Origin: Owenia fusiformis
Taxonomy: Eukaryota; Annelida; Polychaeta; Sabellida; Oweniidae
Assembly: GCA_903813345.2 (NCBI GenBank)
Contig: CAIIXF020000012.1
Coordinates: forward strand, 18,731,520-18,795,519
Length of the DNA stretch: 64,000 nucleotides
Direction: 5' to 3'
The notes under the pieces were generated by a model. It made no database searches. It was not told the origin of the DNA and saw only the letters and a program-made list of their open reading frames with translations. Below, in pieces: positions 13,800 through 60,312 of the stretch (positions within the stretch are counted from its first letter, which is position 1; the number at the start of each line of letters is the position of its first letter). Position numbers and translations under genes: made by a program.

Positions 13800-15837
13800 C
13801 ATGAATTGGATTAATTGCCCGACCTTTTACCTTTCTGTCAATTTGAATTCATGCCGATAAAGGCTCTCAAAATAGAATAAAATTTGTTCTCGAAATTCAA
13901 AGATGAATTGGCTATTGCAATTAGGAGTTGGAGTCCTTATGTGTTCAAGTTTACGTTTTCAAAGGTATTTGGGATTACAGATGTAGATGAGGTTTTAATT
14001 AATGTTATAATTTCTGATAATAGCTGGCCTTGAACTTCATTGAAGTATTTGGAGTTGATGCTGTATTCAAGTCTGGATCAAATAAACTAATAAAGAAAGT
14101 TTGATGTACTGATTTATTTATTTCTATTGCAAATAACTATTTACACATGCTATTTCAAGGTCAACCCATGTGACTATTCATTTTATCAAGCGATTTATAA
14201 AGTTTTATAATTATGCATATACCTGTTGACTCACTTCAATCCTGAACATTAACAAATTTTATCTCCATTTCTGGATGTGGCTAATTCCTATTGTCCCTAC
14301 TGTGGACTAGTGACAATATATATTTTGCAAAAGCCAAAAATGTATGCATTCAGTATTGAAACATCAAGTACATTGTACATCGATCACAAATAAAGACACA
14401 TTTACATATATTCCAATAAATTCAAATACTGTAAAACCTGTAAATAGTGAACACCTATTGAGCCACAAAAAGTGTTCACGTTAGGTATTTTCTAACTAGA
14501 GGGGATTATATACAGGAGTCGATGTGAAATCTATCTTAAGTGGTGTGCACTAAAACAGGTTTTACTGTAGTATATGAGATATAATAAAAAATGTAATACA
14601 TATACCTGTAAACCATATTATATCTAATGAGCGCACAATTCCAATGAGTGCAAATGTGACTTTCTTATTGAATTTTGTCTCAATATTAACACATTGATTT
14701 TGATTAACAGAACTGATTGATATATTATAGTGAGTGATGATTTTCAACATGTTTAATGCAGATAAAAATAGTAGCTGTAGAGTATGAAAACCTAAGTGAT
14801 CACAGCTAAAAGCATCATCGTCGATATTTTTCTCAATATCATACCCTTGAGTTGGCAATAACACCACAGAAAATGCACCGATTCAGGTATGTCCACATAA
14901 ACTAAAATGCCTACATAATGAATACTGCAATTACTGGTTAAATTTGACAAGAAAAAACAATTTCCACAACCCCATGATTAAATGTCAATGAAAGCCCTCA
15001 AAAACTAAAGAATACAAAACACCAGAACCGCTGCTTCTTCAATTTTTGAATTTTTAGAAGAAATCCAATGTTTACCAACAACAGACGCCTTGTTATTCTC
15101 AGAGGCTCACTGTGCAAGAACCATTAATTGAATATCTTAAAGATCATCCAAATGTAATGAGCTAACCAATCTCCAATTTTTATGTATGATAAATCCTGTA
15201 TTGAAATAACAGTATTCATATTTATTCGCCAAGTAGAAATCTTATACTCTCCACCATTTTTATTGGGGCACCAAAATTCATCCATTTAAGATTTCCCTTA
15301 TTAAATGACTATATGTACTTTACAAAGTTATTGCAAATGAATATCTTTACATGAAGTTAACAAGGCATTTCTACAAAAGATTGTTTGCACACATTCAGTG
15401 TAACCTTGTAACAAACACCGATTTCCATCTGAATAACACTCTGACAGAGACTATAAAAATGTATTAGCTATCAAGAGTGATATTTTTCACCAAATGTTTT
15501 CGTAAGTACTATAAATTCAAATACTTCTGATCAATTTACTTAATAAATTCTACTAACCACTATTTCATCAATATTTCGATAGCTTGCGCACAACCAAAGC
15601 AACAAGACAAAAGTATTTTCCTGTATACTACCAGGCCATTGTCCCAATGAACATTAAGATGATTTTGAAAAGGTGTACTTTTTGTAACACATAACAAACA
15701 TGTAGAGAGCTTCTTCATCTGTAAACACAAAGCTTCAAAATCATCCCTGTCATACAGTTTTGTTATTATACCTCCAACATCAAGCGATAGTTCTTCTGTT
15801 ATCATGAACTGACAACCCCGAGAGCCTCTTGCTGATG
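13800..15837. other. Mostly non-coding stretch
   Basis: Apart from the MITE at 14427-14569 I see no supported gene. On the minus strand, 15665-15785 reads ITEELSLDVGGIITKLYD and onward, which is helix-like and could be another remnant exon of the spectrin-like fragment downstream of 17.2 kb; splice signals are weak. Confidence 0.3.
14427..14569. mobile_element. Short MITE with ACTGTAAAACCTG ends
   Basis: ACTGTAAAACCTG at the left and CAGGTTTTACTGTA at the right form imperfect inverted ends around a ~115-bp core. Related in style to the element at 53195-53357. Confidence 0.5.
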
Positions 15838-16670
15838 TTCTGACTCATGTTGTTGTAGAATCTGATGGTGTTCTGACTCCTGTTGTTGTAGAATCTGGGA
15901 ATATTCTGACGCATGTTGTTGTAGAACCTGGGGATGCATTGCTCTGACTCATGTTGTAGAACCTGATGATGTTCTGACTCAGGTTGTTGTAGAACCTGAT
16001 GATGTTCTGACGCATGTTGTTGTAGAACCTGGGGATGCATTGCTCTGACTCATGTTGTAGAACCTGGGGATGTTCTGACTCATGTTGTAACCTGGGGATG
16101 TTCTGACTCATGTTGTTGTAGAACCTGGTGATGGATATTCTGACTCATGTTGTTGTAGAACCTGATGATGTTCTGACTCATGTTGTTGTAGAACCTGATG
16201 ATGTTTTGACTCCTGTTGTTGTAGACACTGATGATGTTCTGACTCATGTTGTTGTAAAACCTGATGATGTTCTGACTCATGTTGTTGTAGAACCTGATGA
16301 TGTTGTAGAACCTGATGATGTTTTGACTCCTGTTGTTGTAGAACCTGATGATGTTTTGACTCCTGTTGTTGTAGAACCTGATGATGTTCTGACGCATGTT
16401 GTTGTAGAACCTGATGATGTTTTTACTCATGTTGTTGTAGAACCTTGGGATGTTCTGACTCATGTTGTTGTAGAACCTGGTGATGGATGTTCTGAATCAG
16501 GTTGTTGTAGAACCTGGGGATGTTCTGACTCATGTTGTTGTAGAACCTGATGATGTTCTGACTCATGTTGTAGCACCTCGGGATGTTCTGAATCATGTTG
16601 TTGTAGAACCTGGGGATGTTCTGACTCATGTTGTAGAACCTGGGGATGTTCTGACTCATGTTGTAGAACC
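15838..16670. repeat. 33-bp-type minisatellite
   Basis: About 25 imperfect copies of a unit built on TTCTGACTCATGTTGTTG followed by TAGAACCTGATGA, with lengths alternating around 30-36 bp. Because the units are mostly multiples of three, both strands hold long open frames (SQNIIRFYNN repeats on minus, DVLTHVVVEP repeats on plus). I treat these frames as by-products of the repeat. Confidence 0.85.
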
Positions 16671-18245
16671 TACAATTCACAATTTACAACTAGAAATTGG
16701 CAACTCCAAGGCGTAGGGAATCCCAACGAACATATATAAATCATGAACTGTACAGTCACAATGTAATATTTACCATCGCACTCTTCCCTTCAATAAATAG
16801 ATCATTGTAGTATCATATCTCTAAGTTATGGCCTATTCCAGCCATTTTTAATTTTCTGAGGCAAGAATCAGAAAAACAATGCCATAATTGTGATCTACTC
16901 TAAAATGCCTTCAGCTTTAGTATAATATAGCCATACTTCTAAGATGAAGAAAATTGAAAAGGTTTAATGGTGATTATAAATATGATCTTAAACAATGCTG
17001 AATGACTTAGTTTTTAACATTTGTTTCGATTAACATTTTTGGCTCACCCTGTGCCTCAATTGTTTCTTATTTCAAGTCATATAAAGAGTTAGTTTAAAAA
17101 TTGCATAAATTGTTGGACTCTGAGACATATCTTCAGTGTTTAATTGTTTTTCCTCAAAATCAGTGTTCAAATGCTCACTTAATAAGCATCATTTCCCAAC
17201 TTTTTGGAATAAAGATACTCATTCTCACCTGATCTGTGCGGTTACCATACTGTGACAACTCCAGGAGACAGCTCTCTAATGTGCCCTTGGTATCTGCGAG
17301 TCGTTTTGTCAAAGTTTCATAATCGTAGTGAAGGTTTTGCCGGATGGTGTCTGGACCCAATACCAAGAAATTTGTCAGAGTTTTCTCTCCCGTGTCTGCA
17401 TGGGATGAAGCAGGCTCTGGCCATCCTCTATTTGTACAGGAATATCCTTTTTGGAGAAATTATACTTTCATTTACATACAGTCACTTTGTTTGCTTGCAG
17501 TAATGCTTTTAGCTTTAATAATCTGAGCAATTACGCCTGATAATTTTAGATGAGTTGCATTTTTCATTCTCCGTAACTTGTAATATTTTGAATGTAAAAT
17601 ATGTTAGAGAAATACATTTGCACTGTATTACTACGAGAGGGTTTTTAATAGTAAATAAGAAGACCTTCACTCGTGCTAGTTGAGTTTGCATTGTGCTTTC
17701 ATCTCTTGAAGTATCCATACAAATGAGAGAGAAATGTAACTTTGGATAATCTCTACAATTTCTTTTGAGACATCTGTTTATAAGGGTTGAGGGTTCAAGT
17801 ATGTGGGAATACAATTTTGATGGAACACCCTGTGTATAATTTCGGCTTCATTCTGTAAAATATCCCAAAATTTACCTTGAGTAATTGAGCTTGTGTGGTG
17901 TGCCTATCCCCCTCCAGGTTATTCAATGGTTTCTCCATCTATTCATTCTGTTGCATTTTTCCAGTGCCTCCTGGTATATGTGGTTTGACAATACATTGTC
18001 ACATTCCCTTAATAAATCCTAAAAGAGAGATCAGATCAAAGAAATGAGATCAAATGGATATCCATTTGCAAGAACAAACACCCTGATTTACATATACTTT
18101 TGTACACGATACATGTAGATTGCAGGGTCAATTAGTCCCCATGACAACTGATTTCCAAGACAACTGGTTGCTAAGAACCAACTCATCCCAAAGTCAATTG
18201 ATCCCCAAAGTCAATTGATCCCCAAGACAACTCATCCATTAGACA

Positions 18246-44846: not shown

Positions 44847-46346
44847 TTTAGCTCACATGGTGAGGTTTTGTAATCGCTCACTTGTCCGTCTGTATGTCCT
44901 TGCGTGCGTGCGTCCGTCCGTCAACAATAGTGGCACATTTTCATATCCCTAAATGCTCTAAACTTTCCCTTCGCTATCTAGGTCCTAATCTTTGGAATGC
45001 TCTACCACATGATATTAAAAAATGCTCCACTCTAAATATTTTCAAATCTTCATATAAAAAACTACTCATCTATCGATAATGTATAATACCAATATCATAC
45101 TATACTGTTGATTTTATACTGGTACCTGATTTTTGTAACATTTTTACATTGTACATCCTTAGATTAATTGTAAATACCATTTTTATATACCTACATGTAA
45201 CATAATATAAGTGTTTTCTTTTATATGTAGTCTAGATGTAATTTTAATGATTTCTGTTAAACCGCAACATATGCCCACTAGGGTGTCTAGCGGCTTGTTT
45301 TTATAGTGTATTATATAAGAATTATGAAATAAATTGAATTGAATTTTATAACCTCTGTCGATAGGATTCCTGTTTTAAGTTATTTCTGTTAAACATCAAT
45401 ACAGAAAACTCCCTTATGAATCCTGGTTCAAAAGTTCGCCTAGTTTCAAAATGGCCGCCATTTTTGTCTCGCAAATTTCACTTTTGAGCCATTTCCTAGC
45501 TTTACAAATAATCTCAGGTGTCCTGCATTGTAAAAAGCCAGAGTAGTGCTATGAAATAATTTTGTTACAAAAAATCAGCAAAAAATAATATCCATTTTTT
45601 GGTTTTCAGCCATTTTAGTTAACATTGATTTGTCCATCTGTCTCGCGAAATCCACTTATCCACGTTTTAAAACCTCTGTCAATAGGGTTCCTGTTTTAAG
45701 TTATTTCTGTTCAACATCAATACAGAAACTCCCCTATGACTCCTGGTTCAAAAGCTCGCCTATTTTCAAAATGGCTGCCATTTTTGTCTCGCGAAATTCA
45801 CTTTTGACCCATTTGATAGCTTTACAAATAATTCCAGGTGTCCTGCATTGTAAAATCCATGTCAATATAAAGAGTAGTTGTATGAAATAATTTTGTTACA
45901 AAAAATCGGCAAAAAATCATATCCGTATTTTTTATTTTCAGCCATTTTAGTAAACATTGATTTGTCCATCTATCTCTCAGTCAGTCCATAATAGCGGCAA
46001 GAGTTAAAACCTCTGTCTGTTAACATGTGGCTCTTTTTAAATCCTCTGTAGATAGGATTCCCGTTTTAAAATATTTTTGTCCAACATCAATAAAGAAAAG
46101 AAAACTGTGACTCCTGATTCAAAAGCTCGCCTATTTTCAAAATGGTCACCATTTTTGTCTCTCTCGGGAAATTCACTTTTGGCCCATTTCCTAGTTTTAC
46201 AAAATATTTCAGGTGCCCTGCATTGTAAAAAGCCATGTCTTTGTAAAGAGAAGTTGAATGAAATAATTGTTACAAAAAATCGGCAAAAATTATATCATTT
46301 CTTTTTATTTTCTCTCATTTTAGCCATCATTCACCATGTGAGCCAA
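44847..46346. mobile_element. Element with GCTCACATGGTGA ends and ~300-bp tandem units
   Basis: GCTCACATGGTGA at 44851 and TCACCATGTGAGC at 46331 are inverted. Three tandem units (about 45361-45640, 45660-45960 and 46020-46330) share CTCGCCTATTTTCAAAATGG, CCATTTTTGTCTCGC and CAGGTGTCCTGCATTGTAAA. A LINE 3' fragment is inserted at about 44939-45345. The Leu/Ser-rich frames are repeat products. Confidence 0.65.
44939..45345 (+). mobile_element. LINE 3'-end fragment
   Basis: The first 140 bp read CSKLSLRYLGPNLWNALPHD then a Lys-rich tail ending LLIYR-stop, the very C-terminus typical of CR1/L2-type LINE ORF2 proteins (R-Y-x-GP-x-LWN-x-LP). About 265 bp of 3' UTR follow and end in an AATTG-type tail (45332-45345). 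It interrupts the element above: GTCAACAATAG at its left continues as ATAACCTCTGTCGATAGG at its right. Confidence 0.75.
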
Positions 46347-46752: not shown

Positions 46753-47720
46753 ACGATCATTAACAGAACACAATTTTGATAATCAGACCTCAAGTTTTAC
46801 ATAGGAAGAAACACAGCAAATCATCATCTAGTTTCTAAGCACTCAGGGAGTCCCAGATTTGCTGCCGAAAATTCAAAATTATGTAATGCTCAACCCTTTG
46901 TACGTAGCTATTTCGCTTCATAAATTACCACAGGTAGGTAACGCAAAGGCTAGTTTTAGGCTGCGTAATGACTAGATTGACTCCTGTATATTTCAAGTGG
47001 GCTTCACAAGAAATCACTATATCTTCTTTGCAAAAAAAACAAAAACAGACACTTTTTCAGTCTTCAAATAACATTTCAATCCAACACTAGCAATGTATTC
47101 ACCATATGAAGGTGCATTCGGATTTTTCTGAGTTGACATTCTAAATCACCCTACAAAACATAAAATTGGAGTCGATGGACGGTAAACATTTTACCCCATA
47201 ATTCATGTGATATTAATACATGTTCGATTTTTTCAATAGTACTTTTTTCAAGGTTAAATTTTTTTAGTTTGGGCCACGGATAAATTACCCCTTTGGCACA
47301 AAAATCAAGGTGCTTTAGGGCATTGTAGGGTAGGGTCTGATGATAGCCGGATGTTTATGCCAATAACGAAATTAATATAATTTTGATAATTAGCTTGTCT
47401 CTAATACTGTAGAAAATGGAAATTAATCTTTATTGCTCTATTTGGTAGATTCTCATTTAACGGATGGAATTCCCTTTTTAACATGCTATATTTCATGACA
47501 ATCAGCCACTTTTGACAATCTTATGAATTCTTTTTTATCAATATTGTATTGATTTCTCAATGCACCCCTTATAGGGTATGAGAGTACAAAAGACAAACTT
47601 AACTTATACATGTAATAAACATTAAAATAACATTTATATATTATAGTGTACGTTTTTTGCCCAACCTCGATTAAAAATTTACAAAGTTTTATTAGTATAA
47701 TTTTTGTTCGAATTCATTAA

Positions 47721-48083
47721 TTATTTCTCAAACTTCTGCGTGTTTGGATTTGTCAAATAACATTTAGGAAGGTACCTTTTTCTAATATAACTTAAAGCTT
47801 TGCATTCTAAAATGACATGAAATTCATCACCTATTCCTCCCGCTATTCCTTTACCACATAAATCACAGAACCTATTTTCCCTTGGAATATTTTTATAACG
47901 TCCTCTTTCAACTCGAAGTCTATTATTACACAATCTGTACATAATTAGAACTTTTCTATATTTATCTGGCATAAATTCTAAATAGTGTTCAAATGAAAAT
48001 TCTGTTTTAAGTATTTCATAGTTGTAACTTTTAGTACTAACTGTCTTGTCACTATTCCACTTTTGTAAAAACTGATCTTGCAT
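47721..48083 (-). pseudogene. LINE ORF2 C-terminal fragment
   Basis: A 120-codon frame with RLCNNRLRVERGRYKNIPRE and FCDLCGKGIAGG followed by DEFHVILEC, a C-x2-C-x12-H-x4-C cluster, then SYIRKRYLPKCY. This arrangement is the C-terminal zinc-knuckle region of non-LTR retrotransposons and resembles the end of the frame at 31189-32670. The RT domain is missing. Confidence 0.75.
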
Positions 48084-48089
48084 CCTTAA

Positions 48090-49088
48090 TTAGTTTTACT
48101 TTTTTGATAAACTCTGCATAACTACAGTGTAACTGACTTCGGATTTATCCAAACATCTGACATGCCAAGATTGTTTAATGTGTTTTTCACATTAGTAAAC
48201 CAATTTGAGGAAAAACTGTCAGACCTCCTTATATCTGACCCGAACGAGCCACCTAGTGGTGAAAAGTACTACCTACTCGCATCTGCGTTATTTGGGTATT
48301 TCAGTAGCTTTGGCAAGCTCTAACTTTCCTATTAGACGGGTTTGGTCGCAATTCTTTCACCAAAACGTGCCTAATTCAATTTTAAGAAAAGTCAGAAATA
48401 AAAAGTATCATTCAAATGTCCACACTTGGATTATTTGGAAAGGAACCTAGTTTGGTCACACTCATTAGGCTTTGTCTGCTTATGTAACCATGCAGCTGCA
48501 GGTAATGCCTTCCCATGATACTTATGGTCAATAGAAATCTGTAAATAATTAACAGTTATTGGTGCATACATTAAGGGTTCAAGGAAACATTTTCTACACT
48601 CGTTCTCCCAAAGTCTGTCTATTCCAAAGGAGAGTAAAAGCTATGGATCCCACGATGGACATTGATGTATTTGTTACAAACCCTTGACATTATTACATGT
48701 GGCCCAAAGGGAGACTTCTGTAGCCGTTTGCAAAACTTTAAAGGAGTAAAAACTGAGTAAAAATCTTACATTGATTTTTTCATTTCCAAGTACAAATTAA
48801 GTTTTTTCACATTGATACACTTAATAGATAACTGTTGGCAAATGTAGAGTGAATAATAATTTAAAGAATAAATATTTTTGAATAAAAAAGGGAGTGTATT
48901 TTATACTAAAAGCTCTCAGCAAATAACATTGCCATGAAATGAACAAAAAATCACTTCCAAAGCTTTGTACATGTTCCTTCCACTTGCTGTAAAATGTCTC
49001 AGTTAGTTTATGAGATTACAGGTACATGCATTGGAACAGTTTGTTTTGAATTGGCACCTTGGAGATAAATGAACCAATCACAATGTCC
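48090..49088. other. RAD1 downstream region, no other gene seen
   Basis: Contains a solo CCTACTCGCATCTGCG end of the 18246/53620 repeat family near 48230-48290, and presumably the RAD1 3' UTR next to 49089. No clear exon. Confidence 0.4.
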
Positions 49089-52000
49089 TCAGTCATTCAC
49101 TTCTTCATCAGGAGAACACTGAAAATATATACCAATAAGAATGAATCAATAAATGAATGTCCTCAATCATTATGGCCTTGCTTAAGGACTGTCAATAGAT
49201 GGCGAAGAATTTAGTGGGTTTTACTATACACTTTTCAATAAAAAATATTCAAAACTTCATTATATTTCAACTTAAAATATTAACATTGTTAACAGAGAAA
49301 ATGTGTGACTTATCCTTCACAAATTCATTTGGAGAAGAGTAAAAATGAGCAGAATATAGGAACACATATTTCCCACCATGTTTGAAAATTTTGAAGTTGA
49401 ATTTTTTTGATTTTTGAATTTAGAATACTGCAACTAAGTGACATATACATGTAGTGCAGTGGAATGTTCAAAACCTCTGGGTGGAGAGCACTATGATATA
49501 TTTATTGTTATGTTCATGTATAATCTACTCAATCTCTGTAATAATTGCTATCATTGAATATATGAAATGTATCATCACCATTATAGTTCCTATAATCAAT
49601 TATAAAAAAGTCTACTTACATAATACTCAACAAAACACACTTGGCCGTCATCATTTTTTATCATATATTGCAGAGATATGAATCCTCTGTAGTCCGTCCT
49701 GATGGAGATTCTAGTGGCGGTTGCCAGGGCTTTAGTAGAGGGCTTTAACAGAGAGAGCTTGTACCTAGAAAAAAGAGATGAGATTCCTTTGTAATCTACC
49801 CTGTAAGGAATTCTTTTTGAGATTGCCAGGGCTTTAGTAGAGGGCTTTAACAGAGAGAGCTTGTACCTAGAAAAAAGAGATGAGATTCCTTTGTAATCTA
49901 CCCTGTAAGGAATTCTTTTTGAGATTGCCAGGGCTTTAGTAGAGGGCTTTAACAGAGAGAGCTTGTACCTAGAAAAAAGAGATGAGATTCCTTTGTAATC
50001 TACCCTGTAAGGAATTCTTTTTGAGATTGCAAGGGGGCTTTAACAGATGCAGCAAGCATACACAGAGATAAACGTGTACCTGGAATAAAGAAATAAGAAT
50101 ATAATGTACATAAATAAATGGAGGGCTCATACAAAAGGACCTATTTATGTACAATTGTACATAAAATAAATGAAGTGCATTTAATAGTAAAAGGATTTGA
50201 GATAATAGAGAGTTTAAACTTGCTCTGTTTTTCACAATGTAAACATAAACTGAAAGTACATGAATCAACAGAGAGATATAAGCACTTTAGTCTACTACAG
50301 ATACCAATTCAGCTTCAGATTTTCTTGTTTGTGAAATTCATGTGAAGTTACGGCCGATTGAGTATTTTGTTCAAAATTTAATACAATATTAAACAAAACA
50401 CTCAATCAGCCGGGCGCGGCCGATGGATCGGAGCAAATGTGACCCAGGCATTACTGATGTATGGATCAGTGAAAATGTCTCATTGATTTTGAACATTTTG
50501 TCTCTGGTGGTATATGCTTTGTTGAGAGATGATCCTTTTTCTCTACATGTCATGGGTAGTTTTTTGTAAACCATTCCTTCTTTGGCTCAAGGAGCATCTT
50601 TATCTCTATGAAGAAAATCCATTAACTTTCCTTAAACGTTTTTTTATTAAGGAATTTTTGAGTTGAATTTGTTTATTAAAATTTTTTCAAGATGGCCGCC
50701 GCTTTAAAAATGACGGGACTTTTTCGCAAAAATCATAAATTTTTCATTCTAAACCAAAGTAATTAATATTATTGTTTGAAATTTTGGTAGTATATTCACA
50801 ACATTTATCTATTTCACATATATTCCGTGTTTTTCATCCTGAACCCCAGGGGCCGTGTATGGGGGGTCAGGAAAACAGAAATTTTCGCTAATTTTTAGAT
50901 CTTTCTGAAGTATAGCTTTATTATACTCAAATGAAAGGCAATTAAGAGTAGATTGCAAATATTGTATCTTTTTTCTGATTCGAGCCTCGTAAAATTCAAA
51001 ATGGCCGTCTAATGTACGATTTCGCAATAATTTTTCGATCCCTTCAAAGTATGGCTATATTATACTCAAATTGAAGGATTTTTGGAGTAGATCACAATTA
51101 TGGTATTATTTTTCAGATTTGTACCTCAGAAAATTCAAAATGGCTGCTTAGCAGGAATTCGCAATTCTAAAATCTAATTTTTTCAATTTTAACCAAAGTA
51201 ATGAGTATAATTGATTGGAATTCGGTAATTGATATTTTGTTCGTTGGGATTTGCTACTCCGCAGAGTTGCCATTATCTAGTTCTGACTCTCAATATCCGT
51301 GTTTTCATCTCATAATTGTCGTCTGTCCATATGATAACCTTGCAGATTTTTTCATTGAACTAGTTTGTCTTGTATTTAATCTATTTAATCTCAGTTTCAT
51401 TATTAGAAATATTAGCATATCCATTTATTTCTTTTACTTAGATTCATTGAGATTCATCTGATGCAACAGATCAGTACGTGTAGGTACACCTGAACTACCC
51501 TTTGCATTCGTTTGACTTCACTTCTTAAAAGAGAGCTTCGTCTTGTAGTTTAACTAGACTCTGCATGCAGGGTACACCTGAACTAAGTGTAATCATAAAT
51601 CAATAAAGGCCTCAGGCCAGAGATGGTGTGAATCATAAAACTGAGGCTGAACAGATATTCAAGCGAGAAGACTACTTACAATGTATATATGGACGATTCA
51701 TAGGTTATATGTTTTCATTCTGATCTTATTTGTAAGCTTAAACTCTCTAATGTTTACCTACTATACAACAAAGGAAGTTCATTCAACACATATTACTTTT
51801 GCATTAAAAACAACAGTACAGATGGTTTTAATTTAGATGAAAATTATATTCTAATGCAATACCTGTTTGTTTGTGTTTGTTGACACTCGAATGATTCTAC
51901 CATATCAGAATCTTTGGGGAAATCTTGCTGAAAACAAAAAATATATACTGTAGATTGGGTTAATTTGGCGCCCGCTTTAATTTGGCGAATTTGGCGAAAT

Positions 52001-55000
52001 TGAAAAATTCGCCAATATAAATCTTCGCCAAAATTTAGAATGAATCCCCGGGAATTATCTAGGGTATTTCGTCCAGTGTATCTAGGTCACTTCCGGTTTA
52101 GTTTTTTCCAAAAATATGAAAAAATGTCTCTCATAAATTGGCTCAGAACTGGTCAGTCACTCATTAATACTCAGGGAAAACTAGAAAGGAAAAGCGCAGT
52201 ATAGGAGCAGCATCGATCGAGGGGCAAAATGTAAAGGATGATCTCACAAATATGTACAAACGTGGTGAATATCGCCATTGGTCCTCAAAAGATAAAATGA
52301 ACATTGCCAAACATGCCCATTTACATGATAATTCGCAAACAGCGGGTAAGTTTAACAATTTTTTTGCATATCCGCCAAATTAAATAGCCGCCAATATGCC
52401 AAAAATGGCAAAATCGCCAAATTAAATAGCGCCAAATTAACCCAATCTACAGTAATGTTCATACCTGACATACTTGTCTCTTTTTCAAAACTTGCCAGGT
52501 GATTTAAAGGGGCAACAAAGACTGGTGACAGTGTAGAGTAAGGTGAGAAAAAATGCACATGTTGGCATTTCTCCATGTTTTGCCTATTTTATTAGCATTA
52601 ACAGTTCTGACTCAATTTCAGGATAATCTCTTTAAATAATTTATGTGTCTAAACATTAAAACTTGCAAAAATTCATTTTTTTAATTCTGCTGAATTTCGT
52701 CATTTTATGTCTTTAAAAACTTTTACATTCTGTATATTCGATCGGATATTTAAATTCTTTTATCAGAAAAAGAAGGAATAGTAAATGAAATACTGGTATG
52801 ATGTTTGAAACGATTGCTTCCATCAATTTACAATCTCTTTAGAATCTTTATTGCAAAATACTGTCAAAATCTTATGACCTCCGCAAATATAACAGCAAAA
52901 TGTCACCACCTGTCATTTGATACCAAACTCTGAATGCCAACCGCCGAACTCTGAACACCCTCCACAAATAAGTTGGGGACTATAACAATATGGCACCACT
53001 TGTTGTGGTACAGACATAAAAAGTAAGCTTGTAGCCATAATCTTTGAACTCACAAGCTGATACATGCTGGTTAAGATTTTTTGACATTTTTACAATGAAT
53101 CATAATGATGTATAATTATGTTCAGGTATTTGTAACAGGTGATATGTTAAATATTTCAAACTCAATTATTGCAATGTAATATTTTACTATACACAGTGAA
53201 ACCTGTCTAAATCAAACACCTTTTGGACCTCTAAAAATGTTCAACTTGAGAGGTGTTCCATTTTTAGAGGTTTATTTCACATTGGTCTTGGGAAAAGTGT
53301 TCCACTAGCAGTGGTGTTCCACCTTTAGAGGTGTTTCATTTTATGGGTTTCAATGTACATGCATACTAGCAAATGCATACGTTACTCACATGTGTACTCC
53401 CCGAGTTACCAAATGTTGACATTCTAAAGTATGGTTTGTCTGGGGACATAAGAATTTGTAGAACTTCACTTGTCATGTCTAATTCACTGAATGCTTCCCT
53501 CAGAGGTTCAGTCTACAAAAGTCAATTTATAAAAGTCATCAATTTGTAAAATAGAGGGTTTGTTTAATCTGCCGCCCCTACCTAAGTGGATACCTACCCA
53601 TCCACCATGCAGGGTCTGATTTTAATTTAATTTCAATTACTCAGATGCGAGTAGGCAGTTACCAGTTTTGCCACCAGGTGGCTGATTCGGGTGAATTAAC
53701 ATGGCAGGGTATTACAAAATTCCCTTAAACTTGAATATGCATCAGTTTTAGTGGTTCACTTTTCATATTACCCTTATGTATCTTATTTCTAAATGTAATT
53801 TTACAGGTAGATTCCAAATATGACATCAGTTTGACTGAATTGTGAATTTTTAATGATGTAAATCAAAATTATTTCTACTCGCATCTGGGATATTAATCTT
53901 GCATTGCGAGAAACTATTTCAAGTTTATCACAATCCAGTTACTGGAGTAGGATGCATGTTTATATTTCAGAAGTACAGCGACATAGGGGAGGTAAAACAG
54001 GACACTTTTACACAGGATAAGTTCAGTCAGTTAAATGAAAGCATATTCTTCTACTTTTTATGTAGAGATGTACATTCATGCACTGAACATGAATATTACC
54101 TTCATTCACTTACCAACCAGCATTAAACTAATCTTGCTATTAAACATTTTCTCTTCAAATTGTGTCAAAACCATCTAAAGTGAAGCTATTTTCTTTAAAT
54201 TTGTCCAATTTTTAGAGTCTTTATTTTAATTTTTTCTGAGAACATTAATTCTTAGTACCCTGCGTGCAGAGTCTAGTTAAACTACACTCTGCCTAGTAGA
54301 GACCATATTACAGTTTATTAGCCCTGCCCCCACGACGGGTCCTGGTGACAGTTTGGGTAATAAATCACTTTTGACCTACGCGCTGACCTTTCTTTCATCA
54401 ATCAGCTAGCTTGAAGAAACATACGCCGAATGCGTTCTAATTAAATATGCGCATGTCATTGGTCAATTCCGGGCTCAACGATGACGTCGGAAGGAATGAC
54501 CATATATAGAACGTCGGTCAAATTTGGCCGACGAACAATGATTGGCGCGGTGAGTTCACAGGTTTATTTAAGTTTGAAAGAGTGAAGACGAAGCTCTCTT
54601 TTAAGAAGTGAAGTCAAACGAATGCAAAGGGTAAATTCTTAGTAGTTTATTGATAATTGACATGACAAAAATGTGTTTACTTGGTTGAGCTAAAATTGAA
54701 GGTTTACAGATATCAAAAAAAATTGTCTGCCATATTTGGATGATACTTAATATTAATATCATCCTGTTGTGGAACAGTCATTTGAGCAACATTACCTTCA
54801 TGATTATCTTGTTCACTACATTAGCACTGCTAAAGTTGAAATCTAGTGTCTCATCTGGTTCTAGTGTTTTAATGCTGCAGTCTGTCAATACCCCACTTTC
54901 TTCTAACCTGTAAAAGGAAATCAAATATATACGATGACTGCTTTCCTATAATCTCTGACACAATTTCAGTGAGCATAGGAATTTATATGTACACTTGTAC

Positions 55001-57172
55001 AGGGTGCCCACTTTCATTGTATTGCTGACAGAAATTTCAATGTACAGAGTGACCACTTTCTCTAGCAGGAATATCAAAGTACAGACCACATTTTTAATAG
55101 AATACATTATTTAAATTCCCATATAAATCCGTATAAAGCGTATTCACATGGACATAAAAACTCAATAAGCATGTCAGTAGTGTGGGTGGGGTTCCATGGG
55201 AGGTACCCATACTTACATTAGTGTAAGAGGACAACCATAGCCACCATAGCACATCTTCAAAGCTGTATTTACCCCTGGAACTGCACTGCTTCCAAATATG
55301 TTCAGGCAATCCTAAGATTAATTTAAAATGGTTTAGCACAATTTAAATATATGCCTATACATTCCAATGGGAGTCAAGACTCATATAGATGGCAGTTCAC
55401 TAAATTTTCTCTTGTAGGTTATTGTTCCCATTGGTTTGTACATAAATGTCACCTCAATATTTTAAAAATATACACTTGTAAGGAAAAGTCTCAAAAGAGT
55501 TAATACTAGGCATATTTTAGGAGACAGGGACACTAAATGATATGCCAATAATTAGCTTTTTAATTAACCTATTGATTTACATGCCGAATGAAACATGTAG
55601 TAATAATAAAAGTGGAACACTTTCCAAATGCCTGTTTTCTCATTTGAAATTGAAATCTGTAAATGGAACACCTAAAAGAAAGATTATTTTGTGGCACTAC
55701 ATGTATTTAGTTACTAACTACATGTACATGTATAGGCATTCCATGTGCACCAATGGGCAGTTATAATGCCATTGGTGTATGTACATATGTACCCAGCCAT
55801 TTAATGTATAAAGTTATGATAAATAAATATGTAAAAAACTGTATACCAGTAAGACTGTAAGGTTGATCTTGAACGTTGACTGCTCTTCTTTGATGATAAA
55901 CTCTTGGAAAACCCCTGCATGGATAAATGCATTGGCCTGGAGACACTTTGACTCCTCAACAGTCAACTTGATCCCATTCTTAGTGGCAAAAAATATTGCT
56001 GTCTGCAAAAGGAATGTATCACATATTAAAGTACACATGAAGATCATGGACCAAGATTTTTGGAGGCTTACATGTATGATCTGAGCCAAAACTGAAACAG
56101 TCAATCTCATCAGTGCATGAGGTACATGTAGCAACATACAGATACAGTACTTTCAATCATTTCTGGCCAGTTTCAGTTGAAAAACCGGTAAAATATATTT
56201 CTGCAAAATTTTGGTCGCAGTTTCTTTGCCTAGCTAAACCAGCTGTTCTGATAGTTCAAAATCAGGCCCGTAGCCAGGATTTCCCAGGGGGAGAGGGGGT
56301 TCACTTTTTGGAAAATACCAGGAGGGGTTCACTTTTGACAATTTTGGTCAAAAAATGGCAATTTGGAAAGAATTTTTGGCCAGGGTGGGGTTCGCTCAAC
56401 CCATCAAACCTCCCCTTGCTATGGGCCCAAAGATGTCAATAAATTTATTGAAACCCAATCTACTGTACATGTACATGTACAGTGTACATGTAGACTCCCA
56501 GTGTAGGCTACATGTAGTCTAGCTCTTACCGCAAAGCTACAAAAATAACATCTTGTATGATCTAGCCTAGGGTGATAATATTGGGCCGTCAACTCAAAAT
56601 TGCTGGCACGACTGTCCTAATTGGTCCTTGTAAAAATGTTGTGATTTGATAGACATATGAACTGTGATGGTTCTTAGTACATATTTGATCGGATAATTGA
56701 GATGATGAGTAGGAAAAACTGAGTTGATGGGATGGAAACTGATTTGACAGGTAACAGAAAATGAAATGACCGTGCAAAAACTGAGATGTTGGTTACCTGA
56801 GAATGAGATGGCGTGGTAAGCGCTGATATGATGGGTATGGTTACTACCCAGGTTACTACTGTGATGATGGCTAAGGGACTGAGATTAGGGGTGACATGCA
56901 TGGTCAGCTTCATTATTTCCTAGAAAAATATTCAGTTGACGGCCGAATAGTGGCTCAGCTTAGGTTACAATACACTTGACTTTCACTGTGACTGATTATT
57001 CAATTTCAAATATTTTTCATTTTCTTTTGAATTGAAATTTGAATCACGAAATCAAAATAGAACTTACATCTTTGAAGTGTATGGCTTTTATGATGCTAGA
57101 CATGTTCTTTGCGTTGTCCAGTTTGGCCACCAACACAAACTGTTCTTCTTCATCTTGGGTAGAAAGGGACAT
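49089..57172 (-). CDS. RAD1: RAD1 checkpoint clamp subunit, complete (8 coding exons)
   Basis: Coding exons, in reading order: 57068-57172, 55847-56002, 55217-55311, 54796-54907, 53390-53512, 51863-51927, 49620-49764, 49089-49118. All have GT/AG borders and joining them keeps one frame of 276 codons, against about 280 in vertebrate RAD1. Diagnostic text: VLVAKLDNAKN and IIKAIHF (exon 1), FFATKNGIKLTVEE and AFIHAGVFQEF (2), NIFGSSAVPG (3), DETLDFNFSSANVVNKII (4), LREAFSELDMTSEVLQI (5), FPKDSDMVESF (6), KLSLLKPSTKALA and GQVCFVEYY (7), CSPDEEVND-stop (8). RAD1 forms the PCNA-like 9-1-1 ring with RAD9 and HUS1, loaded at damaged DNA to activate ATR signalling in the nucleus. The start ATG lies in an exon whose acceptor is at 57289, so a non-coding first exon is expected upstream. 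Introns hold several MITEs, and exon 7 is partly duplicated. Confidence 0.95.
49723..50079 (-). repeat. 102-bp tandem array duplicating the 5' part of RAD1 exon 7
   Basis: Upstream of exon 7 (acceptor at 49765) the 102-bp unit made of TTTTTTCTAG plus the exon start repeats at acceptors 49867 and 49969, and a diverged fourth acceptor lies at 50080. Units 2 and 3 carry YKLSLLKPSTKALA followed by a diverged copy of the next exon part (ISKRIPYRVDYKGISSL versus TATRISIRTDYRGFISL). The unit is 34 codons with no stop, so use of the acceptors at 49867 or 49969 would add 34 or 68 residues in frame. The fourth copy reads a stop after 12 codons. Confidence 0.85.
50345..50452. mobile_element. GC-rich MITE of the CATCGGCCG family, in RAD1 intron 6
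   Basis: CGGCCGATTGAGTATTTTGT at the left and ACAAAACACTCAATCAGCCG at the right are inverted; the right end continues GGAGCAAATGTGACCCAGGC. The left terminal part is missing. Confidence 0.6.
51496..51574. mobile_element. 79-bp deletion derivative with 9-bp TSD, RAD1 intron 6
   Basis: Ends TACCCTTTGC and GCAGGGTA. CACCTGAAC flanks both sides (51487-51495 and 51575-51583). Its two halves match the two ends of the element at 54256-54633 in inverse orientation, with about 300 bp missing from the middle. Confidence 0.85.
51946..52454. mobile_element. 509-bp MITE with TA-type ends next to RAD1 exon 6
   Basis: TACTGTAGATTGGGTTAATT at the left and its complement AATTAACCCAATCTACAGTA at the right; the next inner words TTGGCG / CGCCAA are repeated several times as subterminal repeats. 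It sits in RAD1 intron 5. Its left end is about 18 bp from the first base of exon 6 (51927). Confidence 0.8.
52885..53022. mobile_element. GTCACCACC family, short copy in RAD1 intron 5
   Basis: Starts AAAATGTCACCACCTGTCAT, contains TGCCAACCGCCGAACTC and ends with a diverged GTTGTGGTACAGACATAAAA. No VNTR. Confidence 0.55.
53195..53357. mobile_element. MITE with AGTGAAACCTG ends, RAD1 intron 5
   Basis: CACAGTGAAACCTGTCTAAA at the left and ATGGGTTTCAATGTA at the right form weak inverted ends; the core repeats 'gaggtgttccatttttagaggt'. Confidence 0.4.
53620..53893. mobile_element. MITE with CAGATGCGAGTAG ends, RAD1 intron 4
   Basis: CAGATGCGAGTAG at 53642 and CTACTCGCATCTG at 53876 are exact inverted ends. 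The body is shared with 18246-18690 in inverse orientation. Confidence 0.65.
54256..54633. mobile_element. 378-bp element with 9-bp TSD, RAD1 intron 4
   Basis: Ends TACCCTGCGTGCAGAGTCTA and GCAAAGGGTA. AATTCTTAG flanks both sides exactly (54247-54255 and 54634-54642). The interior is GC-richer than the flanks. Only about 6-8 terminal bases are inverted. A 9-bp duplication suggests a Mutator-like transposase, but no transposase is present to confirm it. Confidence 0.85.
56268..56430. mobile_element. GGCCCGTAGCCAGGA-type element, RAD1 intron 1
   Basis: Starts AGGCCCGTAGCCAGGATT and ends CCTTGCTATGGGCCC, diverged inverted ends of a widespread hAT-like family in marine invertebrates. A related start is at 13427. 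Confidence 0.5.
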
Positions 57173-57504: not shown

Positions 57505-58638
57505 CCTATCTATTGCAAGACTTACGCCTGCCACAACCGTCACCATGTTAATCAGTGTTTTTTAAGTAGCGCAAGAATCCTGCCATGACCGTGGTAGTGT
57601 TATCGTGTAAGCCTGGTATAACCGTGACAGGCTGGTATAACCGTGACAATGCTGTATTCTATTGCAATGCCTGTCATGACCCTGGAAGTGTTATCGTGGA
57701 AGCCTGGCGCGACCGTAGCCTTTATTGTGGTTTATAAGCGAATGTGAATATTAATGTATAGTAGTAATTTTGATTTTGACATGATTAAGGTAGTTAACAC
57801 CATGATCATAGTATTAAACTGTTTAATTGTAATGAGGATCACTTAAAATTGTTAAGGATATTCCTGGCATTAATGCCATACATATTTACTAGTCATTGCA
57901 ATACATTATAATGGTCATAGTAGAACTAAGCCTAAATCTCTACATTACCACCCTCATACCTGGCCTTGCAATACTATATTACATTGTCACGGTCATACCA
58001 GGCTTTGCAATCCCATAAAACATTGTCATGGTCATGCCAGGTTTTCAAATACACATTGTCACGGTCAATTATAGCAATCATAAATTTCTACATCACCACT
58101 CTCATACCCGAACTTGGAATACTATATCACATTGCCATGGCAGTCATACCAAGCCTTGCAATACTATATTACATTGCCATGGTCATGCCAGGCTTTGCAA
58201 TACACATTGTCACGGTTATAGCAGTCCTAATCGTAAATTTCTACATTACAACTCTCATACCTGAACTTACAATACTATATTACATTGTCACGGTCATGCC
58301 AGGCTTTGCAATACACATTGTCACGGTTATAGCAGTCCTAATTGTAAATTTCTACATTACAACTCTCATACCTGAACTTGCAATACTATATTACATTGTC
58401 ACGGTCATGCCAGGCTTTGCAGTACTATGTTACATTGTTACGGTCATACCAAGCCTTGCAGAACTATATTACATTGTCACGGTCATGGCAGGCATTGCAA
58501 TATAATACAGCATTGTCGCGATTATACCAGGCTTTCACGATAACATTACCACGGTCATGGCAGGATCCTTGCGCTACTTAAAAAACACTGAATAACATGG
58601 TGACGGTTACGCCAGGCGTTAGTCTTGCAACAGATAGG
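57505..58638. mobile_element. 1134-bp TIR element with internal tandem repeats
   Basis: About 100-bp inverted ends: CCTATCTATTGCAAGACTTA… at 57505 and its complement ending GATAGG at 58638 (shared GCCTG, ACCGTCACCATGTTA, AGTGTTTTTTAAGTAGCGCA, CCTGCCATGACCGTGGTA). From 57955 to 58560 a ~55-60-bp motif ('gcaatactatattacattgtcacggtcatgccaggctt') is repeated about nine times. A partial copy is at 25216-25430. Frames inside are repeat products. It lies upstream of the RAD1 start codon. Confidence 0.7.
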
Positions 58639-58825: not shown

Positions 58826-60312
58826 CACAAGGAGGATTGGCTCCCAGAATGCAACATGACACATGCTAGGGGAAGTGGTCCTAATTATCGCACGGTCTTA
58901 ATTATCGCACGATTGTCCTAAATAGCTAAAATATACACCCACCATCTTTTAAAACAGTGTTACAAAAAACAGTTGTACACCCTCTGTAACACCATCCTCT
59001 CTGGAGTACCCTCCCACCCATACCTAGGCTTGACCATCTGCAATGACCTCAGGTGGAATGAACAAACTGGGAATGCAGTCTCCAAAGCCACCAGAGCACT
59101 TGGAGTTGTGCGTCGCAACCTCAGAGGGTGCCCCACATCCCTCAAAGAAAAGGCCTACAAGTCCATCGTTAGGCCCCACCTTGAGTATTGTGCCTCAATC
59201 TGGGATCCCCATACCCAAAGGAACATTAATGCCCTAGAGCAAGTCCAACATAGTGCTCTCCGTATGGTCGACAACAACTATGCTAGAGAACCAGGCACGA
59301 TCACCAAGTTATATGATAAGTACCAGTGGGATAAACTTGACATTAGACGTAGCAATAGCAGACTTTCCCTCATGTACAAAATAGTAAATGACAAGGTAGA
59401 AATCACATCTTCAGATTTCTTCACCCCCCTCAGATCCAAGACACGCCATAACAATACTCTGAACTTCACCACATACTCCTGCAACACTGACATACTCAAA
59501 TACTCTTTTGTACCAAGGACCATTGTTGAATGGAATAAGCTTGATGACACCATCGTAACCAGCCCATCAATAGAACTCTTTAATAAAGGACTATGTAATA
59601 AGGACTAATCCATTTAAAGTTATATAAATTATCCCCTTCAGGGTCACCTATATATATTTTCTTGAAAAATCCAGGTGATAAATATATAATGATTATGATT
59701 ATGACAGTTCAACACCATTACTACCAATCTTCATGATTTATTCATATATTTAGAAATATCTCTTCATTTTTTAAGAATTGTTTACTTCCGCTATTGTCAT
59801 GTATGCTATTGCGCAAAAAGTGAAATTCGTCTGACAAAGTTTGACCCCCCTCCAAATAAAGACAAAAAAGTAAGTGTATAATGGATATTTTGTTGATATT
59901 TTACACTAAAACTGATAGAAAAATGATTATGGCATATGTATGTATCTGTTATAAACAGAGAAATGTATACAGTATCGTGAAATGACATCTGAAACACAAC
60001 TGTGCGATAATTAGGACGACTGTGCGATAATTAGGACCACTGCACATGCAAGTCTAAGGGGTCTTAAAGTGTTAGCGTTCGGAGATTGAGAAATGTCAAA
60101 CAGTACTTAAATTTTAGAAGAAAGGTTGATCTTTCATCTCATATTCTCAAAGTAAGTTGAAGTTATCATATTTGAAATCGTCAGTAGTTTTCCAGAGTAC
60201 CCGTGCGTTGATAGGACCATTTCCCCTACTGTCGTTCTGCCATTTTGAAACCTAGCTGTCACGAGTAAATAAGGTTAACTGATGTTGCATTCTGGGAGTC
60301 AATCCTTCTTGG
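58826..60312. repeat. Inverted blocks around a LINE, with ZNF143/Staf-like motifs
   Basis: CAAGGAGGATTGGCTCCCAG… at 58828 and …CTGGGAGTCAATCCTTCTTG at 60292 are near-complementary, as are AGGGGAAGTGGTCCTAATTA at 58868 and the ATAGGACCATTTCCCC text near 60211-60226. Inner GTCCTAATTATCGCAC words pair with GTGCGATAATTAGGAC at 60002-60042. TCCCAGAATGCA (58842-58853) and its complement (60286-60297) match the core of the ZNF143/Staf site. Confidence 0.55.
58935..59700 (+). pseudogene. CR1/Jockey-type LINE fragment (RT C-terminal part)
   Basis: A 211-codon frame from 58973 to the stop at 59606-59608. Diagnostic words: HPYLGLTICNDLRWN, KATRALGVVRRNL, YKSIVRPHLEYCASIWDP (thumb/connection region of RT), ALRMV, WDKLDIRRSNSRLSLMYKI and a C-terminal FVPRTIVEWNKLD. 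This order is typical of the C-terminal end of CR1- and Jockey-like ORF2 proteins. Catalytic YADD and the endonuclease are missing. The 3' end passes into ATGATT-type repeats (59685-59703). Inserted between the inverted promoter-like blocks. Confidence 0.85.

What the first reader, a model, noticed from the sequence alone, without database searches (positions are those of the whole stretch)
49723..50079. RAD1 exon 7 start amplified as an in-frame, splice-competent 102-bp array
The acceptor plus the first ~90 bp of a core RAD1 exon are repeated every 102 bp. Two upstream copies have intact TTTTTTCTAG acceptors and an open frame of exactly 34 codons, so alternative 3' splice choice could yield RAD1 with 34 or 68 extra residues duplicating clamp structure (YKLSLLKPST). 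The extra copies share diverged text with each other but not with exon 7, so they were amplified after the first copy diverged. A fourth copy is already broken by a stop. This looks like an exon caught in the act of internal repeat growth in an essential clamp gene.
Basis: partly seen in the sequence, partly recalled or inferred. Interest (0 to 1): 0.8.

Follow-up and report, generated by a model that had tools for sequence, protein, structure and literature searches.

The report
Repeated exon head in RAD1 gene
The start of one RAD1 exon, with its splice signal, was copied long ago, the copy appears to have decayed like ordinary intron, and a piece spanning it was recently repeated; it is a neat example of ordinary tandem duplication, and whether cells ever make the longer RAD1 proteins it permits needs RNA data.

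Summary
On the minus strand, a 102-bp unit (first 44 nt of RAD1 coding exon 7, then diverged text and a TTTTTTCTAG acceptor) is present twice, head to tail, directly upstream of the real exon, with a fourth, broken 111-bp copy further upstream. The gene is complete in the window (8 coding exons, 276 aa) and is the only Rad1-family gene found in its genome. Splicing to the acceptors before 49866 or 49968 would give open proteins of 310 or 344 aa; the one before 50079 hits a stop (231 aa). The diverged text is not foreign: it is an old copy of the next ~50 nt of the same exon (32 of 51 bases match in register; maximum 27 in 20,000 shuffles). Its changes fall evenly over codon positions (6:6:7), it scores about half as well on the Rad1 profile, and copy 4 is broken. 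Best reading: an old partial-exon duplication that became intron, then a recent amplification of the segment between the two copies. Alternative isoforms are possible, because all four acceptors score above the gene's six other acceptors, but nothing here shows that they are made. The nearest known analogue found is the AG|GT-delimited array of polyubiquitin UBC.

The parts
49620..49764 (-). RAD1 coding exon 7 (145 nt), from acceptor AG at 49766-49765 to donor GTAAGT at 49619
   Evidence: matches human RAD1 (3a1j_C, E 2.2e-20); CDS closes to 276 aa
49721..49764 (-). block A: first 44 nt of exon 7, identical in the two adjacent units
   Evidence: first mismatch at unit position 45
49671..49721 (-). 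block C: next 17 codons of exon 7, homologous to the diverged part of the unit
   Evidence: 32 of 51 bases match in register; shuffle maximum 27 in 20,000
49765..49866 (-). unit 1 (102 nt): A, diverged B (homologous to C), pyrimidine tract and TTTTTTCTAG acceptor of exon 7
49867..49968 (-). unit 2 (102 nt), identical to unit 1; its A block is preceded by an intact acceptor
49969..50079 (-). copy 4 (111 nt): diverged A' with indels and an in-frame stop, then an intact B; own strong-scoring acceptor AG at 50081-50080
51863..51927 (-). RAD1 coding exon 6 (ends ...QTNR, phase 2, donor CAG|GTATTG)
49089..49118 (-). RAD1 last coding exon (CSPDEEVND stop)
49089..57172 (-). RAD1 gene, 8 coding exons: 57172-57068, 56002-55847, 55311-55217, 54907-54796, 53512-53390, 51927-51863, 49764-49620, 49118-49089
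   Evidence: exon limits inferred from frame, splice dinucleotides and similarity; no transcript

Best explanation
It is a two-step tandem duplication at the 3' end of RAD1 intron 6. Step 1, old: about 100 bp spanning the pyrimidine tract, the AG and the first ~93 nt of exon 7 was duplicated in tandem. The upstream copy was no longer needed and drifted as intron, giving A' and B. Step 2, recent: a 102-bp piece made of B, the acceptor and A (spanning the boundary between the old copy and the real exon) was amplified to three copies by unequal exchange or slippage. The layout is now acceptor|A'-B-acceptor|A-B-acceptor|A-B-acceptor|A-C. Every boundary is a usable-looking acceptor, and the unit happens to be a multiple of three and open. 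Shown by sequence: the layout, the homologies and the identities. Inferred, not shown: most mature RAD1 mRNA joins exon 6 to the 49764 acceptor (normal 276 aa), and the array leaves with the intron. Leaky use of the upstream acceptors would give +34 or +68 residues, or a truncated product.
For: The layout and identities are read directly. B is homologous to C: 32 of 51 in register against a shuffle mean of 13.6 and maximum of 27 in 20,000; protein score 38 with no shuffle as high in 20,000; with gaps allowed, local score 46 against a shuffle mean of 25 (p 0.0003, 3,000 shuffles). In an ungapped minus-strand scan of 47000-53000 the best place for B, apart from its own copies, is exon 7 at 32; the next is 27. 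A' is homologous to A: score 40 against a shuffle maximum of 32 in 5,000. Its acceptor tail matches the unit's at 18 of 29 positions before the AG, against a shuffle mean of 10.3 (p 0.0004) and 9 to 13 for the six other RAD1 acceptors, so the tract was duplicated too. Non-coding drift of B: codon-position changes 6:6:7; dN/dS about 0.53, roughly what one free and one constrained lineage would give; Rad1 profile 15.4 against 33.3 bits. Recent amplification: zero differences between units 1 and 2. High background: 8 separate arrays with period 80 bp or more in this 64-kb window.
Against: B holds no stop and no indel over 51 nt although it is 37% diverged, while A' needs three gaps against A; that would also fit some past coding use. 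With only 19 changes the codon test is weak (Fisher p 0.51 for synonymous against nonsynonymous). The upstream acceptors are not decayed: all four score 7.3 to 8.7 bits against -2.2 to 6.7 for the six other RAD1 acceptors, and the best is the furthest upstream, at 50079 (recalled weight matrix). So the claim that 49764 dominates is inference.
Confidence: 0.7

Rival explanations
1. One reading: real alternative 3' splice choice among identical acceptors yields RAD1 isoforms with 34 or 68 extra residues, possibly at appreciable levels.
For: Three identical acceptors with intact tracts, in frame, open through the array. Their scores exceed those of the six other RAD1 acceptors. B has no stop or indel over 51 nt.
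Against: B shows no clear sign of protein constraint. The higher-scoring 50079 acceptor gives a stop, so strength alone cannot be setting the choice if RAD1 works. No transcript data are available here.
Confidence: 0.2
2. Dual-specific splice-site array: each unit starts with GT straight after an AG and ends with AG, so each 102-nt unit can itself be removed as a GT-AG intron, or re-spliced after an upstream acceptor was used (which regenerates CAG|GTACAA). The array would then be self-correcting, like the UBC array.
For: All four boundaries are AG|GTAC. The 50079 boundary scores 1.45 as a donor and the regenerated CAG|GTACAA 0.62, against 1.35 for the native exon 6 donor; 5 of 77 GTs in the intron score as high as 0.62. 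[quoted passage not shown]
Against: The GT lacks consensus at +4 and +5 (consensus recalled). The three TAG|GTACAA boundaries score -1.68 as donors, below all seven native RAD1 donors (-1.31 to 5.12). AG|GT here is simply the codon boundary of the native exon.
Confidence: 0.08
3. Assembly artefact: copy number mis-stated, or a false tandem made by the assembler.
For: Units 1 and 2 are identical, and no raw reads are available here.
Against: The array is only ~315 bp, short for long reads if those were used. The fourth copy is diverged and still attached, and a single locus is found in G000.
Confidence: 0.07

Closest known systems
Polyubiquitin UBC array of dual-specific AG|GT splice sites (Duan et al. 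2024, PMC10809524; abstract and passages seen)
   Same: Tandem repeat whose every boundary is AG|GT; splicing choice could change the number of units in the mRNA
   Different: UBC units are functional ubiquitins with splicing shown by RT-PCR; here the units are partial, drifted, sit beside an ordinary acceptor, have a weak GT side, and no RNA evidence exists
[quoted passage not shown] potato RdRp case, PMC4974935; passages seen)
   Same: Tandem duplication spanning an intron-exon boundary, so the copy inherits tract and acceptor (in potato also a putative branch site)
   Different: In potato a cryptic GTAAG donor turned the copy into a new intron plus exon; here no comparable donor is seen (best inside the units AGG|GTAGAT, 0.42) and the old copy lies inside the existing intron
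Tandem duplicated exon substitution (mutually exclusive exons; PMC9741552, abstract seen)
   Same: A second, homologous copy of part of an exon next to the first
   Different: Those isoforms keep the key structural and functional residues (abstract) and come from whole exons with both splice sites (recalled); here the copy lacks the exon's 3' part and its donor, and differs at residues that exon 7 shares with human RAD1
Intronic minisatellite / recent tandem duplication (general kind, recalled)
   Same: Near-identical ~100-bp units, one of 8 arrays of period 80 bp or more in this window
   Different: The unit carries a 3' splice site and the head of a coding exon

Membership tests
RAD1 (9-1-1 clamp subunit, Pfam PF02144) | Sequence match over the family profile and to solved RAD1 | tested here: met
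   Four exon matches over the cut-off in G000, all at this locus; ORF 49596-50039 hits RAD1 chains at E 2.2e-20 and PF02144 at 2.3e-17; complete 276-aa CDS
Tandem duplication with later re-amplification | Head-to-tail copies, older copy diverged, younger copies near identical | tested here: met
Dual-specific splice-site array (UBC type) | AG|GT at each unit boundary | tested here: met
   four AG|GTAC boundaries
Dual-specific splice-site array (UBC type) | The same site used as both donor and acceptor | not testable with these tools
   no transcript data; donor side scores -1.68 (three sites) and 1.45 (50079)
Recursive splicing ratchet point | Acceptor juxtaposed with a donor that is generally stronger than the donor of the exon it heads (PMC8605326 passages) | tested here: not met
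   donor side -1.68 (three sites) and 1.45 (50079) against exon 7 donor 2.32 (recalled matrix)
Mutually exclusive tandem exons | The duplicate has its own acceptor and donor | tested here: not met
   units end at the next acceptor, before the exon's 3' part and its GTAAGT donor; the only donor-like site inside, AGG|GTAGAT at 49799/49901/50003, scores 0.42 and would give a 67-nt, frame-breaking exon
Mutually exclusive tandem exons | The duplicate keeps coding constraint | tested here: inconclusive
   no third-position excess, but 19 changes only; profile score halved
Alternative 3' splice-site exon | More than one acceptor used in mRNA | not testable with these tools
   acceptors look competent, no RNA

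The most novel reading that the evidence does not exclude
A newly forming, UBC-like splice-site array inside a DNA-damage clamp gene. Identical AG|GT-bounded 102-nt units make RAD1 mRNAs with 0, 1 or 2 extra 34-residue blocks, or remove the blocks by re-splicing, so that the gene tolerates copy-number growth at its own acceptor and the array varies between individuals.
Probability: 0.12. Interest if true: 0.6.

Novelty: new member of a known kind. Interest (0 to 1): 0.3.

Why it matters
If the upstream acceptors are used, this is a natural competition test among identical 3' splice sites in one transcript, and a young example of how a tandem repeat at an exon edge could add protein blocks or new introns. 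If not, it shows that strong-looking acceptors 102 to 315 nt upstream of a coding exon can be ignored, and how exon-edge duplications decay into intron.

Tried and rejected
Chance similarity of B to exon 7 was rejected by shuffles. The idea that B is plain ancestral intron tail was rejected because B matches the exon in register and A' and its acceptor tail match A and its tail. Dispersed repeat or transposon origin of the unit was rejected: one locus found in G000. A second RAD1 gene or pseudogene: none found (6 candidates scored, 4 matches, all here; distant, withheld or intron-split copies cannot be excluded). A structure prediction of the 147-aa ORF, without alignment, was useless (mean pLDDT 36.3), so no structural claim is made from it. 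Pfam on that ORF also listed four families below their cut-offs (PF13932, PF23265, PF18201, PF10838); not followed, taken as chance. Relatives could not be examined, because the genome tool said that G000 has no relatives held.

Paper searches: one search gave 0 papers, one search gave 1, one search gave 2, one search gave 2, (RAD1 splice variants) gave 9; judged from listings only, none appears to describe this. One search gave 4, one search gave 56 (12 listed), one search gave 45 (10 listed) and one search gave 44 (10 listed); from these I opened four papers, abstract or passages only. This is not a proof that nothing is in print.

Full report
The reported array exists and is correctly placed. 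TRF gives 49721-50035 with period 102, 3.1 copies and 99% matches. On the minus strand, AG|GTAC boundaries have their first exon base at 49764, 49866, 49968 and 50079; the first three share an identical 24-nt acceptor context ending TTTTTTCTAG. A search of the own genome with one unit found only this locus: 100% and 100% for the two full units, 96% over 71 positions of the unit for the fourth copy, and 83% over 94 nt for exon 7. The Rad1 profile finds four exon matches over its cut-off, all in this gene.

The gene is intact as far as sequence shows. Eight coding exons assemble to a 276-aa RAD1 with one terminal stop, and the exon 7 region matches solved RAD1 chains at E 2.2e-20. The exon 6/7 junction is phase 2 (AACAG|G TAC). 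Using the acceptor before 49866 or 49968 gives 310 or 344 aa in frame; using the one before 50079 stops at 231 aa.

Anatomy. Unit and exon 7 are identical for 44 nt (block A) and then differ. The differing part B is not foreign: aligned in register without gaps to the next 17 codons of exon 7 (block C) it matches 32 of 51 bases, against a shuffle mean of 13.6 and a maximum of 27 in 20,000. The peptides ISKRIPYRVDYKGISSL and TATRISIRTDYRGFISL score 38 with no shuffle as high in 20,000. With gaps allowed the local score is 46 against a shuffle mean of 25 (p 0.0003), and 34 against the 1.76-kb intron. Copy 4 begins with A', a diverged A with three gaps (net +9 nt) and a stop, and then carries the same B. 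A' aligns to A at score 40, shuffle maximum 32 in 5,000. Its acceptor tail matches the unit's at 18 of 29 positions before the AG, shuffle mean 10.3, p 0.0004; the six other RAD1 acceptors match at 9 to 13. This gives acceptor|A'-B-acceptor|A-B-acceptor|A-B-acceptor|A-C. The simplest history is an old duplication of acceptor plus exon head (A'-B beside A-C), followed by a recent amplification of the 102-bp B-acceptor-A segment to three copies.

Was B ever protein? Its 19 differences from C fall 6:6:7 on codon positions. pS is 0.50 and pN 0.33, dN/dS 0.53, about what a free copy paired with a constrained exon would give; synonymous and nonsynonymous rates do not differ significantly (Fisher p 0.51), so the test has little power. 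Of nine amino-acid differences, human RAD1 agrees with exon 7 at five, with the unit at one and with neither at three (human residues). The unit scores 15.4 bits on the Rad1 profile, under the cut-off of 24, against 33.3 for the same stretch of exon 7. The open frame is weak evidence: 51 coding nt with 19 random substitutions stay open in 60% of simulations. Against this reading, B has no indel although A' does.

Splicing. With a recalled weight matrix, the array acceptors score 7.3 (three times) and 8.7 (50079), above the six other RAD1 acceptors (-2.2 to 6.7) and above all 95 AGs scored in the intron between 51862 and 50110 (maximum 4.4). So upstream use cannot be dismissed on site strength. 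But the best site, 50079, leads to a stop; if the gene works, as its intact frame suggests, site strength alone does not decide. As donors, three boundaries are poor (TAG|GTACAA -1.68, below the seven native RAD1 donors at -1.31 to 5.12). The 50079 boundary scores 1.45, and the donor regenerated after joining exon 6 to a unit, CAG|GTACAA, 0.62, against 1.35 for the native exon 6 donor. This keeps alive, at low probability, a dual-specific-site reading like UBC, where AG|GT sites delimit repeats and splicing varies the number of units (PMC10809524; abstract and passages). Inside each B lies one further donor-like site, AGG|GTAGAT, at 0.42; a cassette exon ending there would be 67 nt and break the frame. 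Duplication across an intron-exon boundary with inherited 3' signals is also known from a potato gene (PMC4974935; passages).

Background. The window holds 8 separate tandem arrays of period 80 bp or more, 4.3 kb in all. If such arrays fell at random, one within 100 bp of one of RAD1's seven acceptors would have a chance of roughly 16% (crude). The event is therefore not exceptional for this window.

Verdict. A real and cleanly readable two-step exon-head duplication in RAD1, most likely intronic and ordinary in origin.

Noticed in passing
window 15835-16671: Degenerate 33-bp tandem array; one + strand frame reads DVLTHVVVEPD-like repeats over 142 aa (16122-16550), and two minus-strand frames of 104 and 138 aa are also open, so an open frame here is not evidence of a gene.
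   Followed up: partly
window 57913-58425: Tandem array with 39-, 111- and 151-bp periods overlapping an open + strand frame of 189 aa (57936-58505), just upstream of RAD1's first coding exon.
   Followed up: no
window 58922-59608 and 47721-48089: ORFs that look like fragments of retrotransposon reverse-transcriptase proteins on either side of RAD1 (identity recalled from appearance, not searched).
   Followed up: no
window 45344-45976: A 320-bp tandem duplication (1.9 copies, 87% matches) downstream of RAD1.
   Followed up: no
window 49726-49753: Inside block A the exon itself holds a 13-bp tandem repeat (2.2 copies, 86% matches), repeated again in each unit.
   Followed up: no
window 49799, 49901 and 50003 (minus strand): Each B holds a donor-like AGG|GTAGAT that exon 7 lacks at the homologous place; with the acceptor before it, it could in principle make a 67-nt frame-breaking mini-exon.
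   Followed up: partly
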